From the NCBI GenBank assembly GCA_023475225.1, contig JAMCVK010000042.1, positions 1 through 46,117 on the forward strand: a DNA stretch of 46,117 bases. Reading direction: 5' to 3'. This stretch comes from Chloroflexota bacterium (lineage in GTDB: Bacteria > Chloroflexota > UBA6077 > FW602-bin22 > JAMCVK01). This document shows positions 10,151 through 36,520 of this stretch, piece by piece. Below the pieces are notes generated by a model. The model did not search any database. It saw only the letters and a program-made list of their open reading frames with translations, and was not told the origin of the DNA. Numbering within the stretch: the first letter of the stretch is position 1; each line of letters opens with the position of its first letter. The position numbers and the translations under genes are program-made.

Positions 10151-10819
10151 ATGGTCATTTCAGCTAACGCGATCCTGGCTTCCCTTGCCCAGGCTATCAT
10201 GGATGGAGACGAACAACGCGGGAGGGATCTCGCCCAGCAGGCTTTAGGGGCGGGGTTAAGCCCTAGCAACATCTTTGAGGAGTGCATAACCCCTACCTTG
10301 CAACAGATTGGGGACAAATTTAAGCGACTAGAGATCTTTCTGCCGGAGATGATGCTCTCGGCTGATGTGGTGAAGGGGATCACGCGGGTATTGGAGCCGG
10401 TCATCTTTAAAGAGAAGGGTTCAGTGCCCTCGCAAGGGAAGGTAGTTATTGGAACGGCGCAGGGTGATGTGCACGATATAGGTAAGAATATGGTGGCCAC
10501 GATGCTGGAGGTCAGTGGTTTTAAGGTTTACAACCTGGGAGTGGACGTATCAACGGCTGCCTTCTTAAGCAAGGCGCGGGAAGTGAGGGCTGACATCATT
10601 GCTATTTCCTCGTTGCTCACTACCTCCACCCCCTTTATGAAGGATGTAATCTCCTTCCTGGAGGGGGCTAGGGAAAGGAATGAGTACCGAGTGGTCGTGG
10701 GTGGCGGTCCGGTGACGCGGGAGTGGGCTCAGCGGATCGGGGCTGACGGCTATGGCAAAGATGCCGCTGAGGCGGTGAGCGTGTGTCGTGAATTAGTGGG
10801 AAGCAAGAAGCGAGGGTAA
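10151..10819 (+). CDS. Corrinoid protein of a methyltransferase system (MtmC/MttC type)
   Basis: This 222-residue cytoplasmic protein carries the cobamide cofactor that takes a methyl group from the substrate methyltransferase and passes it on. It has an N-terminal four-helix cap domain and a B12-binding Rossmann domain with GDVHDIGKN, in which His108 is the expected lower cobalt ligand. The GVDVSTAAFLSKAREV, SSLLTTSTPFMK and VGGGPVT segments complete the family pattern. A strong AAGGAGG precedes ATG 10151. The next gene, 9 bases on, encodes an MtmB-like methyltransferase, so the two are presumed partners. It is the only corrinoid protein here and may serve both MtmB-like paralogues. No reductive activator and no methyl-accepting enzyme are encoded in this window. 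Confidence 0.93.
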   Translation: MVISANAILASLAQAIMDGDEQRGRDLAQQALGAGLSPSNIFEECITPTLQQIGDKFKRLEIFLPEMMLSADVVKGITRVLEPVIFKEKGSVPSQGKVVIGTAQGDVHDIGKNMVATMLEVSGFKVYNLGVDVSTAAFLSKAREVRADIIAISSLLTTSTPFMKDVISFLEGARERNEYRVVVGGGPVTREWAQRIGADGYGKDAAEAVSVCRELVGSKKRG

Positions 10820-10828
10820 GGGCCAAAG

Positions 10829-12208
10829 ATGAGAAACTACACGAGATTATTGGATATTCTCGATCGTGTTGAGAATGGACCGATCATCGACGAGACCGAA
10901 TTCGACCGCAAACTGTTGCCGGCTAAGTTAAAGGAACTGCAACGGGAGCTCGACATTCGCTACGACCGGCAGAGCAGTATCCTTCTGGATGATGCCCTGG
11001 CCGATCGCCTCTTCGAGGCCGGTCTGCGCCTGGCCACTGATGTTGGTGTCCTCTGTACCAGCACTGGTCGACGTATCACCTTCACCCGCCAGGAGATCCT
11101 GGATGCCCTGGAATTTGCTCCGCAGGAGCTCATCATTGGCCGGGGGTTGGATCGGTGTACGGTGCGCAAGAGGCAGGTAGAGGATAGGGTTCCCCCCGGT
11201 GTGGTCGGTGGTCCCATCGGGCAAACGTTACCAGAAGAGCTCTTTCTGCCCATAATGCAGAGCTACGCTCAGGAGCCTATTGTCGATACCATCATCAATG
11301 GGACGCTGCTCACAGTCTATAACCGAGAACCCAAGACCCATTCCCCATGGGAGGTGCTGGTTGCCTGGCATGAGGCAGAGCTCTCCAAGACGGCGGTAAA
11401 CCGAGCCGGTCGTCCTGGGCTGGCCATTGGCTGCGTCGAGACTTCTCCCAGTGAAATAGGAGAGATATCAGCCAGCTCCTATGGTGGCTTCAGTCCCTAC
11501 GATTGGCATCAGGTCGCTATGGTTAGTGAGTTGAAGACCAACTATGCCCTTTTGGCCAAGATAGCCCATTTGGTGCGGACAGGTTGTATAATTCACACCT
11601 TTTACAATCCTATCTTTGGCGGCTACGCCGGTGGTGCCGAGGGGGTGGCCATCACGGCCGTAGCCGGGATCATGCTGATGCAGATGGTCTACATGACTAC
11701 CACTCATTCGATCTGTCCCACCCATCCCTTCTTCGAGTCAGATACCGCCCCCGAGATAGTTTGGGCCATCAGCGCGGCGCAGCAGGCCATCAACCGTAAT
11801 ACCCATCTGCTAACCGATGTCCTCGTTTCACCAGTCGGTGGTCCTTGCACCAAGGTTCTTCTTTACGAGACGGCCGTGATCACGGCTGCGATCACCGTAT
11901 CTGGGACAAGTCGCGTTTTCGCTGTCAGATCGACGGCTGGCAAATATCAGGGGTATTCCAGCGGGCTAGAGGCTAGATTCAGTGGCGAAGTCGGGCAGTC
12001 TGTGGCCGGCATGAGCAGACGGGAGGCTGATGAAATAGTGAAGCGACTCATCCCGAAATATGTGGACTACCTGGATAAGGAGCCGAAAGGGAAGCGCTTC
12101 GATGAGGCCTACGATATGCACACGCTCCGGCCAACTCCAGAGTGGCAAAGTATCTATGAGGAGGTGAAAGAAGAGCTAAGAAAGATAGGAATCCCCTTCA
12201 AAAAATAG
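10829..12208 (+). CDS. Pyrrolysine-lacking MtmB-family methyltransferase, copy 1
   Basis: At 459 residues this protein has the length of monomethylamine methyltransferase MtmB (458) and aligns along it: LFEAGLRLATDVGVLCTSTG, VVGGPIGQTLPEELF, VDTIINGTL, AGRPGLAIGCVETSPSEIG, and IFGGYAGGAEG. In Methanosarcina MtmB, as I recall it, the active-site stretch is RPGMGVOGPETSLSAQG with pyrrolysine 202. Here the aligned residue is Gly201 (codon GGC, 11429-11431) followed by Cys. The protein therefore cannot use the pyrrolysine imine chemistry. Non-pyrrolysine members are known for the related MttB family (for example MtgB for glycine betaine), so demethylation of another N-methyl compound is inferred, with the preceding corrinoid protein as methyl acceptor. 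Substrate unknown. Confidence 0.85.
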   Translation: MRNYTRLLDILDRVENGPIIDETEFDRKLLPAKLKELQRELDIRYDRQSSILLDDALADRLFEAGLRLATDVGVLCTSTGRRITFTRQEILDALEFAPQELIIGRGLDRCTVRKRQVEDRVPPGVVGGPIGQTLPEELFLPIMQSYAQEPIVDTIINGTLLTVYNREPKTHSPWEVLVAWHEAELSKTAVNRAGRPGLAIGCVETSPSEIGEISASSYGGFSPYDWHQVAMVSELKTNYALLAKIAHLVRTGCIIHTFYNPIFGGYAGGAEGVAITAVAGIMLMQMVYMTTTHSICPTHPFFESDTAPEIVWAISAAQQAINRNTHLLTDVLVSPVGGPCTKVLLYETAVITAAITVSGTSRVFAVRSTAGKYQGYSSGLEARFSGEVGQSVAGMSRREADEIVKRLIPKYVDYLDKEPKGKRFDEAYDMHTLRPTPEWQSIYEEVKEELRKIGIPFKK

Positions 12209-18464: not shown

Positions 18465-19841
18465 GTGAGGAATAATGTGAGGTTGCTCGATGTGCTTGAC
18501 CGAGCGGAGACAGGGCCGGTGATGGACGAAAAGGAGTTCGACCTCAAGATGGTCGCTGGCAAGGTGCCAAGGCTACAGCGGGAGTTCAACATCCATTGGG
18601 ACCGCGTCACCCTGGTCAACACTGATAATGAGCTCGCTGATCGCGCTTTTGAGGCTGGACTGAAGATGGCCGCTGACGTTGGGCTTTACTGCACTGATAC
18701 GGGCAGACGGATTGTGTTTACGCGCGAGGAGCTATTGCGCTATGCCCGCCATGCCCCAATCGAAGTGCCCATCGGTGAGCACCTTGACCGCCACATCGTG
18801 CGGAAACGGGTGCCTGAGGATAAGCATCCACCCACAATCATCGGGGGGCCATTGGGACAAACCTTACCTGAAGACCTCTTTGTGCCCATCATGCATAGCC
18901 ATGCCCTGGAGCCTATCGTGGACACTGTAATCAATGGAACACTTGAGACCTGTTATGGTCGGGACCCCCGCACCCACTCCCCTTGGGAAGTGATGGTCGC
19001 CTGGCGAGAGCTTGAGCTCTGTAAACTAGCGGTCAGCATGGCTGGTCGGCCAGGGATCGCCATCGGTTGTGTAGAGAATGCCCCCAGTGAGATTGGGGAG
19101 ATCTCGGCCTCTTCTTATAGTGGGTTCAGCCAGTATGATTGGCATCAGGTGGCCGTCGTTAGCGAGCTCAAGACCAACTATGCCCTCCTCTCCAAGATTG
19201 CCCATCTGGTGAGAACACAATGCGTTATTCACGGCTTCTATAATGCCATCTATGGGGGTCTCCCCGGTGGCGCGGAGGGTGCAGCTATCAGCACGGTAGC
19301 GGGCATGCTCTTGATTCAAGCGGCCTATATGGCCACCTCCCATGCGATGTGTCCAACCCATCCGTTCAATCTCAACGACACTGGCCCGGAGACGCTCTGG
19401 GCGATGAGCCTAGCGACCCAAGCCCTGGCCGGCCATACAAATCTGATGATCGATGTTTTGACCTCCCCCGTCGGCGGACCAGGCACGAAGACGCTGCTCT
19501 ATGAGTGTGCGGCGGTGGCTGCTATGGGCACCTGCTCTGGAGCGGCGCGACTGATGGGTGTGAGGGCGACCTGTGGCAAGTATAGAGGACATTCTAGCGG
19601 CCTGGAATCCCGCTTTAATGGTGAGGTGGGGCATGCCATAGCTGGTATGAGTAGAGAGCAGGTCAATGAGATCGTCAAACGTACTGTTCCTAAATATATC
19701 AATGACCTACCCCAAGAGCCCAAGGGTAAGGTCTTCCCTGAAGTGTATGATATGCGAACGATGCGACCAAACAGCGAGTGGCAGGGGCTCTATGAGGAGG
19801 TCAAGGAGGAGATGGTCGCGCTCGGAATCCCGCTCGTTTAG
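18465..19841 (+). CDS. Pyrrolysine-lacking MtmB-family methyltransferase, copy 2
   Basis: The 458-residue protein is a paralogue of the product at 10829-12208, roughly 60% identical by eye. The similarity is highest in the core (SEIGEISASSY, YDWHQVA, VSELKTNYALL, KIAHLVRT) and lower in the first 50 residues. The active-site stretch is AGRPGIAIGCVENAPSEIG, with Gly201 (codon GGT at 19065) at the pyrrolysine position of MtmB. Differences from copy 1 around the pocket, such as VENAP for VETSP and NLNDTGPETLW for ESDTAPEIVW, suggest related but different substrates or a heteromeric partner. GTG 18465 follows an AGGAGGAG site. A molybdenum hydroxylase begins 65 bases downstream. Confidence 0.85.
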   Translation: MRNNVRLLDVLDRAETGPVMDEKEFDLKMVAGKVPRLQREFNIHWDRVTLVNTDNELADRAFEAGLKMAADVGLYCTDTGRRIVFTREELLRYARHAPIEVPIGEHLDRHIVRKRVPEDKHPPTIIGGPLGQTLPEDLFVPIMHSHALEPIVDTVINGTLETCYGRDPRTHSPWEVMVAWRELELCKLAVSMAGRPGIAIGCVENAPSEIGEISASSYSGFSQYDWHQVAVVSELKTNYALLSKIAHLVRTQCVIHGFYNAIYGGLPGGAEGAAISTVAGMLLIQAAYMATSHAMCPTHPFNLNDTGPETLWAMSLATQALAGHTNLMIDVLTSPVGGPGTKTLLYECAAVAAMGTCSGAARLMGVRATCGKYRGHSSGLESRFNGEVGHAIAGMSREQVNEIVKRTVPKYINDLPQEPKGKVFPEVYDMRTMRPNSEWQGLYEEVKEEMVALGIPLV

Positions 19842-34389: not shown

Positions 34390-35373
34390 GTGATCATCGT
34401 GGCAGGTGGGGAAAGAGAATCGCTGAAACAGAAAACGAATCTCTGGGCCAGGTTCCGCATCACCCCTGTAGTCAAGGGCAGTATACAGCAGGAAATCGTC
34501 GCGCTGGTTGCCTTCACCCTTCTGCTGCTCATCGGTTGGCTGGATTACAGCAGACAGTCACCTGTAACCTTCTGGATACTCTATCTTGTCCCGATTATAG
34601 GTGTGAGTATTTATGGACGATTGCTGCTCGCCGTCTCCTTCACCGTTTTTGCTGCTATCGTCTCCCTGCTGGCTGACCTGCTCTCTACCCCTGATCCGAG
34701 CCTATACATTTATGATTATTGGGAAGCATTCATCCGTTTACTGATCTGGGGCGTCGCTGCCATCGCCATATGCCGCTTAGCTCAAAGCAACAAGGCGCTG
34801 CGTGAATACCAGGAGGCGTTAGAGCAGGAACATCAGAAGGTACATGAATTGGCGCGTACGGATGAGCTAACTGGTCTATTTAACCTTCGCTATCTAAACG
34901 AGCGCATCAATGAGGAGATCGGACGGTCATGCCGCTTTGCTCATCCCTTAGCGGTCTTGATGATCGACGTGGACAACCTCAAGGGTGTTAACGATACCTA
35001 TGGTCATGCTGAGGGTGATCGTCTCCTGAGGGAGATAGCACGGACCTTACGCGCTGCTGTGCGCAGTGTTGATGTCGTGGCCAGGGTCGGCGGCGACGAA
35101 TTCGTGATAATCCTCCCGGAGACAGGGGCGCAGGGGGCCCGGGCTGTTGCTGAGCGCATCCTCGGGCTGGTTAGGGATAGGGTGAAGTTGTTCGATACTA
35201 TTGTGCCCACCGTCAGCATCGGCCTGGCCTCCTATGAGCGGGTGATTCAGAGCGGAGAGGGCTTGATTAAAGCGGCTGATGAGGCCCTGTACCAGGCCAA
35301 GAGGGCCGGTAGAGGGCAATTTCGCGAGGTGAGTATGGTTCAAGAGGTGGGCACAGAAGGCTGTTACGGCTGA
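34390..35373 (+). CDS. Membrane-anchored diguanylate cyclase
   Basis: The 327-residue protein has an N-terminal region with about four membrane segments (IVALVAFTLLLLIGWL, YLVPIIGVSIYGRLLLAVSF and following), a short coiled linker and a C-terminal GGDEF domain. The active motif RVGGDEF is intact with GGDEF at residues 234-238, so it should make cyclic di-GMP from two GTP. An RxxD inhibitory site (RSVD) lies five residues before it, predicting product feedback. The domain ends with ALYQAKRAGRGQF, as usual. The start is GTG 34390 or GTG 34399. It converges on the metallophosphatase gene. Confidence 0.92.
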   Translation: MIIVAGGERESLKQKTNLWARFRITPVVKGSIQQEIVALVAFTLLLLIGWLDYSRQSPVTFWILYLVPIIGVSIYGRLLLAVSFTVFAAIVSLLADLLSTPDPSLYIYDYWEAFIRLLIWGVAAIAICRLAQSNKALREYQEALEQEHQKVHELARTDELTGLFNLRYLNERINEEIGRSCRFAHPLAVLMIDVDNLKGVNDTYGHAEGDRLLREIARTLRAAVRSVDVVARVGGDEFVIILPETGAQGARAVAERILGLVRDRVKLFDTIVPTVSIGLASYERVIQSGEGLIKAADEALYQAKRAGRGQFREVSMVQEVGTEGCYG

Positions 35374-35470: not shown

Positions 35471-36391
35471 CTATTCCTTGCGATATGGCTCCAGGAGTTT
35501 GACCATCTCCGGGTCATCGGGGAAGGCCTCGGCTGTCAAGGTGAGCATCTTCCCCTCGTAGTTTGTGACCTTGCCCGCCCCATCTATGTGCAGATGGAGC
35601 ACGCTCAATTGCTCCCCAAATCTACCATCCTGCACCAGGAGCGTTTCAGCGCCCTCCACCTTAGCTGGAGGCTGCGGTAAGCCCAGCATGGCCGAGCCGA
35701 CGATCACGGTGATCCCGGGAACCTCCTTGGCTATCTTCTTATCGAGCTCTGGCCCCAGGTGGGAGAGAAGAATGATGATATTGGTTTCCCGCTTCACCTC
35801 GGCCACATATTCCTTAGCCATGGCCAGGATATCCAGGCTGCTCACCCCGCGGGCCTCGGGGGCGGTGGGAGATGGCCTGGTCAGGTCGGTCAACCCGATG
35901 ATGGCCACCTTGCGTCCGCCTATCCTCATGATCTTGTAAGGTTGAGCGACCAGTTCGTTGGTACCGGTCTTAACGACGTTGGCCGAGAGGAAGGGGAAGG
36001 CGGCTTCCTTGGCCCGAGCCTGCACGACCTCGGGCCCGAGCTGGAAATCTTGATCCCCCAGTGTCATGGCATCGTACTTAAGTAGATTCATGGCCGCGAC
36101 GATGACCCTGCCCTGGGTGCGGTTAGCGATGGGTTGTCCGAGTAGGGTGTTGCCAGCATCGAGGAGCAATACGTTACCACCCTGCGCCCGTTCTTGTCTT
36201 ATCGCGGTGGCCCGCCGGGCCAGACCTCCCTTAGTGACCACTCAGCCGCACGGATCGATATATCCATTGGTATCGCTGCTGTGGATGATGGTTAGCTCGA
36301 TCGGCTGAGGTGGAGTAACACCACTACAACCGCTCAAAGTGGGGATGAGCAAGGATGGCAGGATAGCGGCGATCAGCCAGATGCTTTTCAT
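35471..36391 (-). CDS. Lipoprotein metallophosphatase (UshA-like) with in-frame TGA; candidate selenoprotein
   Basis: From ATG 36391, after TTGGAG, the frame encodes a signal peptide with lipobox LSGC, a linker, then TIIHSSDTNGYIDPCG, an in-frame TGA (36244-36242), and VVTKGGLARRATAIRQ onward. If the TGA is read, the product is 306 residues with selenocysteine 50 in a Cys-Gly-Sec motif. Homologues I recall read PCGC before GGLARRA, so TGA replaces a Cys. Later motifs are LLDAGNTLLGQ, TLGDQDFQLG and LLSHLGPELD of the calcineurin-like UshA family, with degenerate metal ligands (SDTNG, GSAMLG). There is no 5'-nucleotidase C-terminal domain. The alternative is a pseudogene, or a shorter protein from GTG 36241 that would lack the export signal. 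Confidence 0.75.
36208..36222 (-). other. SECIS-like stem-loop after the in-frame TGA
   Basis: On the minus strand, 19 bases after the TGA, TGGCCC-GGC-GGGCCA forms a perfect 6-bp stem with a 3-base loop starting GG. A further GG/CC pair is possible across a small bulge. Bacterial SECIS elements sit just downstream of the UGA inside the coding region, with the apical loop about 16-37 bases away and a G in its first two positions. This hairpin meets both. Confidence 0.5.
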
Positions 36392-36492
36392 AGCGAACTC
36401 CAAAGCTGATAAATTTCTTGGTAGCCTCTGAAAGAGACGAACCTTCCCGGGGGCTATGCAGGGATTTCCCTGTTGGGCTGTCCTCAGTCAGC

Positions 36493-36520
36493 AGTATATC
36501 ACCTCGCCCAGAGCTGTCAA
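36493..36520 (-). promoter_or_regulatory. Promoter of the metallophosphatase gene
   Basis: On the minus strand, a perfect TTGACA (36520-36515) and TATACT (36498-36493) are 16 bases apart. The predicted leader is about 95 bases and contains a CAGGGA/TCCCTG inverted repeat. A near-consensus promoter argues against the gene being a decayed remnant. Confidence 0.75.

What the first reader, a model, noticed from the sequence alone, without database searches (positions are those of the whole stretch)
35471..36391. In-frame TGA in a Cys-Gly-TGA motif: candidate new selenoprotein
A near-consensus promoter, a ribosome site, an ATG and a lipoprotein signal lead in frame into one TGA, after which the metallophosphatase domain continues without interruption. 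The TGA falls where homologues, as I recall them, have the second Cys of CGC (PCGC then GGLARRA). Single TGA at a conserved Cys is the classic pattern of selenocysteine, and I know of no selenoprotein described in this family.
Basis: partly seen in the sequence, partly recalled or inferred. Interest (0 to 1): 0.8.

Follow-up and report, generated by a model that had tools for sequence, protein, structure and literature searches.

The report
Metal-free UshA-like selenoprotein in Chloroflexota
This gene really does use a UGA codon for the rare amino acid selenocysteine, but the UshA-like selenoprotein family was already known; what looks new is a large Chloroflexota branch in which the old phosphatase domain has lost its metal-binding residues and kept a Cys-x-Sec site instead.

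Summary
On the minus strand, ATG 36391 to TAG 35471 encodes a 306-aa lipoprotein interrupted once by TGA (36244-36242) in PCG-TGA. TGA at the same codon recurs in about 75 homologous loci, in about 56 of 396 genomes of one related class. A SECIS-like hairpin sits 22-31 nt after the UGA. Its two stem pairs made only of silent codon positions covary: Watson-Crick in 64/68 and 65/68 genes, against 50.7 and 40.3 by shuffling. Perfect 6-bp stems occur in 51/65 genes against 3.0 expected from codon usage. The genome has selA, selB and tRNA-Sec. selD was not found, although 14 of 14 other carrier genomes checked have it.

The novelty claim fails. UshA-like (COG0737) CxU selenoproteins were listed in 2008, and NCBIfam holds NF041198 'UshA-like (seleno)protein'.

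What seems new is this branch: single-domain (~300 aa), never over the NF041198 cut-off, and without the metallophosphatase metal ligands (Asn-His pair 0/74; first His 2/74; last two His 3/74 and 1/74). Non-Sec relatives keep these in 26-28 of 30. It is therefore probably not a phosphatase but an extracytoplasmic protein using Cys-Gly-Sec for redox or chalcogen chemistry. That function is inferred.

The parts
36493..36520 (-). sigma-70-like promoter TTGACA-16-TATACT (11 of 12, with TG upstream of the -10)
   Evidence: consensus match only
36398..36401 (-). GGAG ribosome-binding site, 6 nt before the ATG
   Evidence: sequence
35471..36391 (-). UshA-like single-domain selenoprotein gene (306 codons plus TAG, one in-frame TGA)
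36326..36391 (-). lipoprotein signal peptide, lipobox LSGC with Cys22 at 36328-36326
   Evidence: sequence; the lipobox also occurs in most relatives
36248..36250 (-). Cys48 codon, resolving-Cys candidate of the C-G-U motif
   Evidence: PCGU in 67 of 77 loci
36242..36244 (-). UGA codon for selenocysteine (Sec50)
   Evidence: TGA at this codon in about 75 homologous loci
36208..36222 (-). apical stem-loop of the bacterial SECIS element, UGGCCC-GGC-GGGCCA; loop 36216-36214, 25 nt after the UGA
   Evidence: silent-position covariation; 51/65 perfect stems against 3.0 expected
36206..36226 (-). extended SECIS helix: two outer G-C pairs across a 2-nt bulge (UC)
   Evidence: sequence; outer pairs less consistent (47-53 of 68)

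Best explanation
The gene encodes an exported lipoprotein with selenocysteine at residue 50, inserted at UGA by SelB, tRNA-Sec and a SECIS hairpin lying within the codons for L-A-R-R-A (shown by sequence and comparative evidence). It belongs to a Chloroflexota branch of the UshA-like selenoproteins. That branch keeps only the N-terminal calcineurin-like domain and has lost most of the two-metal ligands, including the Asn-His pair in every member, so it is very unlikely to be a 5'-nucleotidase (shown as residue loss; loss of activity is inferred). The Cys-Gly-Sec motif sits directly after the first strand, beside the former metal-ligand loop. The most likely mechanism is that the Sec selenol and Cys48 cycle between reduced and selenenylsulfide forms in the old active-site pocket. 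They would reduce or transfer a small extracytoplasmic oxidised or sulfur/selenium substrate on the cell surface (inferred, about 50%).
For: TGA at the same codon in about 75 loci from about 59 genomes, in proteins 30-51% identical to this one. SECIS: pairs 9-21 and 12-18, made only of third codon positions, are Watson-Crick in 64/68 and 65/68, against shuffled 50.7 and 40.3 (0 of 5000 shuffles reach the observed value); non-Sec homologues with the same peptide motif show 1/7 and 3/7. Perfect 6-bp stems 51/65 against 3.0 expected. The loop starts with G in every gene, 22-31 nt after UGA. selA 589 bits, selB 371 bits, tRNA-Sec 72 bits over its cut-off with anticodon TCA. Sec-ushA lies convergent to and within about 50 bp of selA in three genomes. 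The Sec clade plus one Cys member is one clade (UFB 99). Ligand loss: H38 2/74, N117 0/74, H118 0/74, H243 3/74, H245 1/74, against 26-28 of 30 in non-Sec relatives. Fold: AF2 pLDDT 85.9 from a 7-row alignment; Foldseek best hit is 5'-nucleotidase 2z1a.
Against: No SelD over the cut-off in this 96.85%-complete assembly; the best hit is a ThiL/HypE-like paralogue. 14 of 14 other carrier genomes checked have SelD, so incompleteness is the likely reason. The formate dehydrogenase alpha genes found in this genome have no TGA, so Sec use is not confirmed by a second gene here. The single-sequence minimum-energy fold is not better than shuffles. Redox function rests on a CxU motif alone. D36 (72/74) and H220 (43/74) are often kept, so some residual metal binding is not excluded.
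Confidence: 0.82

Rival explanations
1. The TGA is a sequencing error or a nonsense mutation in a decaying gene.
For: A single assembly of metagenome type (50 contigs); SelD missing.
Against: The same codon is TGA in about 75 independent loci in other genomes, with a covarying SECIS and otherwise open frames.
Confidence: 0.02
2. TGA is a true stop here, and a shorter cytoplasmic protein starts at GTG 36241.
For: A standard-code ORF of 256 aa begins at GTG 36241, directly after the TGA.
Against: It would lose the lipoprotein signal, the first strand and the conserved PC motif; relatives do not keep a start codon there; the hairpin is conserved at silent positions.
Confidence: 0.03
3. It is a selenoprotein that keeps phosphoesterase or sulfur-ester hydrolase chemistry (UshA- or SoxB-like), with Sec as a metal ligand or nucleophile rather than a redox residue.
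For: SoxB is the second-best NCBIfam family for the window protein and matches 28/28 members; D36 is kept in 72/74 and H220 in 43/74; the motif lies at the former metal site.
Against: N117 and H118 are absent in all 74, and the first and last His are almost always lost; a CxU spacing suits a selenenylsulfide.
Confidence: 0.2
4. UGA is reassigned to another amino acid in this genome, not to Sec.
For: None beyond the open frame.
Against: TGA ends neighbouring genes (e.g. stop at 35371-35373); selA, selB and tRNA-Sec are present.
Confidence: 0.01

Closest known systems
NCBIfam NF041198 UshA_like_PCGU, 'UshA-like (seleno)protein' (COG0737, CxU; PMC2398784, PMC13188914)
   Same: Matches 28/28 branch members tested and scores best of all families for the window protein; PCGU motif followed by GG-ARRA.
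   Different: Members match only about the first 277 of 519 profile positions; those whose scores were shown lie between 130 and 180 bits against the 275-bit cut-off, and 0 of 400 Chloroflexota genomes are over it. Whether the model's own members keep metal ligands was not testable here.
NCBIfam NF049981 UshA-like (seleno)protein family 2 (CxxU)
   Same: Similar single-domain length (262 positions); a few branch members have CxxU (L023 CNTU, L106 CGVU, L132 CGGU, L137 CSTU).
   Different: This protein scores 52.8 against a cut-off of 140; most members are CxU.
5'-nucleotidase/UshA/CD73 (PDB 2z1a, 1ush, 4h1y)
   Same: Same N-terminal fold (Foldseek E 2e-25, query TM 0.77; sequence E 1e-30).
   Different: No C-terminal substrate domain; two-metal ligands lost; Sec and Cys at the site instead.
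SoxB thiosulfohydrolase
   Same: Second-best NCBIfam family for the window protein (134.8 bits); GG-AR motif region aligned.
   Different: Far below its 550-bit cut-off; SoxB is a dimanganese enzyme (from general knowledge), and that site is absent here.

Membership tests
Bacterial selenoprotein gene | In-frame UGA at a codon conserved in homologues | tested here: met
   About 75 loci with TGA at the same codon
Bacterial selenoprotein gene | SECIS hairpin just downstream, loop containing G | tested here: met
   loop 25 nt after UGA in the window, range 22-31
Bacterial selenoprotein gene | SelA, SelB and tRNA-Sec in the genome | tested here: met
Bacterial selenoprotein gene | SelD in the genome | tested here: inconclusive
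   Not found in G000; present in 14/14 other carriers checked
Bacterial selenoprotein gene | Selenium found in the protein | not testable with these tools
   Needs 75Se labelling or mass spectrometry
NF041198 UshA-like (seleno)protein | Score over the curated cut-off of 275 bits | tested here: not met
   180 bits, profile positions 9-273 of 519
NF041198 UshA-like (seleno)protein | PCG[U/C] motif at the family position | tested here: met
   (PCGU in 67 of 77)
NF049981 UshA-like family 2 | Score over the cut-off of 140 bits | tested here: not met
   52.8 bits
UshA/5'-nucleotidase enzyme | Two-metal ligands (D36, H38, D85, N117, H118, H220, H243, H245 in CD73-type numbering) | tested here: not met
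   Only D36 and H220 kept in this protein; 0-4 of 8 across the branch, 5-8 of 8 in non-Sec relatives
UshA/5'-nucleotidase enzyme | C-terminal substrate-binding domain | tested here: not met
   ORF ends after the N-terminal domain; NF041198 match ends at position 273 of 519

The most novel reading that the evidence does not exclude
A large, essentially Sec-only clade in which a calcineurin-like metallophosphatase domain has been converted into a metal-free selenol redox or chalcogen-transfer protein on the cell surface, with some paralogues carrying two Sec (UGU or UU) that could form a diselenide.
Probability: 0.4. Interest if true: 0.75.

Novelty: new variant of a known kind. Interest (0 to 1): 0.5.

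Why it matters
Most bacterial selenoproteins are thiol-fold oxidoreductases or molybdenum enzymes. This branch puts Cys-x-Sec into a hydrolase fold whose metal site has been erased. It is widespread in one class (about 14% of sampled genomes), often in several copies per genome, and almost never replaced by Cys, which suggests chemistry that sulfur cannot easily do. Curated models miss it, because they need a longer protein, so automatic annotation is likely to truncate these genes at the UGA or start them after it.

Tried and rejected
The SECIS was not obvious from minimum-energy folding of single sequences (z about +1); covariation at silent positions gave the answer. My candidate SelD (C15) was rejected as a ThiL/HypE-like paralogue, since other carriers have both it and a true SelD. 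L138 (KRGU, no hairpin, genome without selA over the cut-off) was left out of the ligand and codon tallies as probably not Sec. Pfam gave no match. A viral-contig scan with the broad alignment could not be run because too little of it was conserved. A plasmid search listed only ordinary 5'-nucleotidases and SoxB, or unannotated matches, among its best rows. The selA association in the class is modest: 52/56 carriers against 263/340 others, Fisher p 0.007, because most genomes of the class have selA. The carrier count of 56 is from the matches printed. The pair-count tool was called with a structure of the wrong length and replaced by my own script. Genuine NF041198 members from other phyla could not be reached, so whether metal loss is general to the known family is open.

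Full report
WHAT IS THERE. The ORF is on the minus strand, window 36391 to 35471. Translated with TGA as Sec it gives 306 residues: a lipoprotein signal (LSGC), then IELTIIHSSDTNGYIDPCG-U-VVTKGGLARRAT, ending at TAG. A strong sigma-70-like promoter lies at 36520-36493 and a GGAG lies 6 nt before the ATG. The neighbouring GGDEF gene ends in TGA, so TGA is a stop in this organism. The gene follows uvrB and uvrA on the same strand. uvrB also lies near the homologous gene in four other loci (L097, L142, L144, L146).

IS IT SELENOCYSTEINE? Four independent lines agree. First, recurrence. Searches of related genomes and of genome contigs returned about 75 loci with exactly this TGA, 30-51% identical to the window protein. 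The commonest motif is PCGU (67 of 77 loci). Second, the SECIS. About 25 nt after the UGA lies UGGCCC-GGC-GGGCCA, inside the codons for L-A-R-R-A-T. Because the peptide constrains the sequence, I tested only pairs whose two bases are both third codon positions. Pair 9-21 is Watson-Crick in 64 of 68 genes (shuffle mean 50.7) and pair 12-18 in 65 of 68 (shuffle mean 40.3), with G-C, A-U, U-A and C-G versions at 9-21 and C-G, U-A and G-C versions at 12-18; no shuffle of 5000 reaches either. Relatedness among the sequences is not removed by these shuffles. Six non-Sec homologues with a GG-x-[AS]-RR motif, plus the one Cys member, together show 1/7 and 3/7. A perfect 6-bp stem is present in 51 of 65 genes, where resampling synonymous codons at local usage gives 3.0. 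Third, machinery: selA (589 bits), selB next to it (371 bits) and tRNA-Sec (72 bits, anticodon TCA) are in this genome. Fourth, in three genomes (G400, G456, G428) the homologous gene lies convergent to selA with 35-50 bp between them (coordinates).

THE WEAK POINT. No SelD reaches the cut-off in this genome. Fourteen of fourteen other carriers checked have it, and there selD itself contains a TGA. With 96.85% completeness and 50 contigs I read this as a gap in the assembly, but it is not shown. The formate dehydrogenase alpha genes of this genome carry no TGA.

WHAT KIND OF PROTEIN. NCBIfam's best match is NF041198 'UshA-like (seleno)protein' (180 bits against a cut-off of 275), covering positions 9-273 of 519; SoxB comes second. 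All 28 diverse members scanned match NF041198, and none of 400 Chloroflexota genomes has a match over its cut-off. The AlphaFold model (pLDDT 85.9, 7 rows) matches the N-terminal domain of 5'-nucleotidases (2z1a, E 2.4e-25). So this is the first half of a known selenoprotein family, standing alone.

THE METAL SITE IS GONE. Aligned to CD73/UshA-type proteins (for the pairwise alignment, for the tally), the branch keeps D36 (72/74) but has H38 in 2/74, D85 in 28/74, N117 in 0/74, H118 in 0/74, H220 in 43/74, H243 in 3/74 and H245 in 1/74. Thirty non-Sec homologues, mostly full-length and mostly from the same phylum, keep 26-30 of 30 at each. No branch member keeps more than 4 of 8 ligands; no non-Sec relative keeps fewer than 5. 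The GOS paper remarked that UshA-like, with SelD and FdhA, lacked the conserved Cys-based redox motif of the other major families, although it tabulated CxU (PMC2398784).

EVOLUTION. In a maximum-likelihood tree of 105 proteins, the Sec proteins and one Cys protein (L114, CAC motif) form one group (UFB 99, SH-aLRT 87) apart from the non-Sec 5'-nucleotidases. L114 sits inside it, most simply a Sec-to-Cys loss; its genome has no selA over the cut-off, and its hairpin is broken at pair 9-21, though the same genome still carries one Sec copy (L117).

MECHANISM (inferred). Cys48-Gly-Sec50 follows directly on the first strand and the loop that carried the first metal ligands. With the metals gone, the simplest use is a Cys/Sec pair working in the former active-site pocket on the outer face of the membrane. 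Whether the substrate is a peroxide, a disulfide or a sulfur/selenium species cannot be told; the SoxB resemblance makes sulfur species worth testing first.

NOVELTY. The branch described here (single-domain, without metal ligands, almost Sec-only, in about 56 of 396 sampled genomes of one class) appears undescribed in the literature I could search, but I could not compare it with the metal ligands of genuine NF041198 members. The class is probably Anaerolineae, inferred because contig lengths of two carriers equal those of L045 and L046, titled Chloroflexi and Anaerolineae.

Noticed in passing
L136:2873-4063 (G505 contig C35) and L134 (G505 contig C41): Paralogues with two in-frame TGAs: L136 reads TNUGUG (both positions of the CxC motif are Sec codons), L134 reads GGUU (adjacent TGAs). 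One hairpin follows each pair; possible diselenide variants.
   Followed up: partly
L114:2937-3962 (G401 contig C217): The one Cys-containing member of the branch (PCAC); hairpin broken at pair 9-21; its genome lacks selA over the cut-off yet carries another copy with TGA and an intact hairpin (L117).
   Followed up: partly
L142:1-2570 (G445 contig C109): uvrB next to the Sec gene appears to be interrupted by an intein-like insertion right after the Walker A region (GATATGKS|LDGQEPLFL...).
   Followed up: no
G400 C4:6886-9199, G456 C120:23622-25935, G428 C12:3001-5311: selA and the UshA-like selenoprotein gene are convergent neighbours in this genus.
   Followed up: partly
window 10151-12208 and 18465-19841: A corrinoid-protein-like gene and two trimethylamine-methyltransferase-like (MttB/COG5598-type) genes without an in-frame stop, near xanthine-dehydrogenase-like genes and a BmpA-like nucleoside ABC transporter; recognised by eye only.
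   Followed up: no
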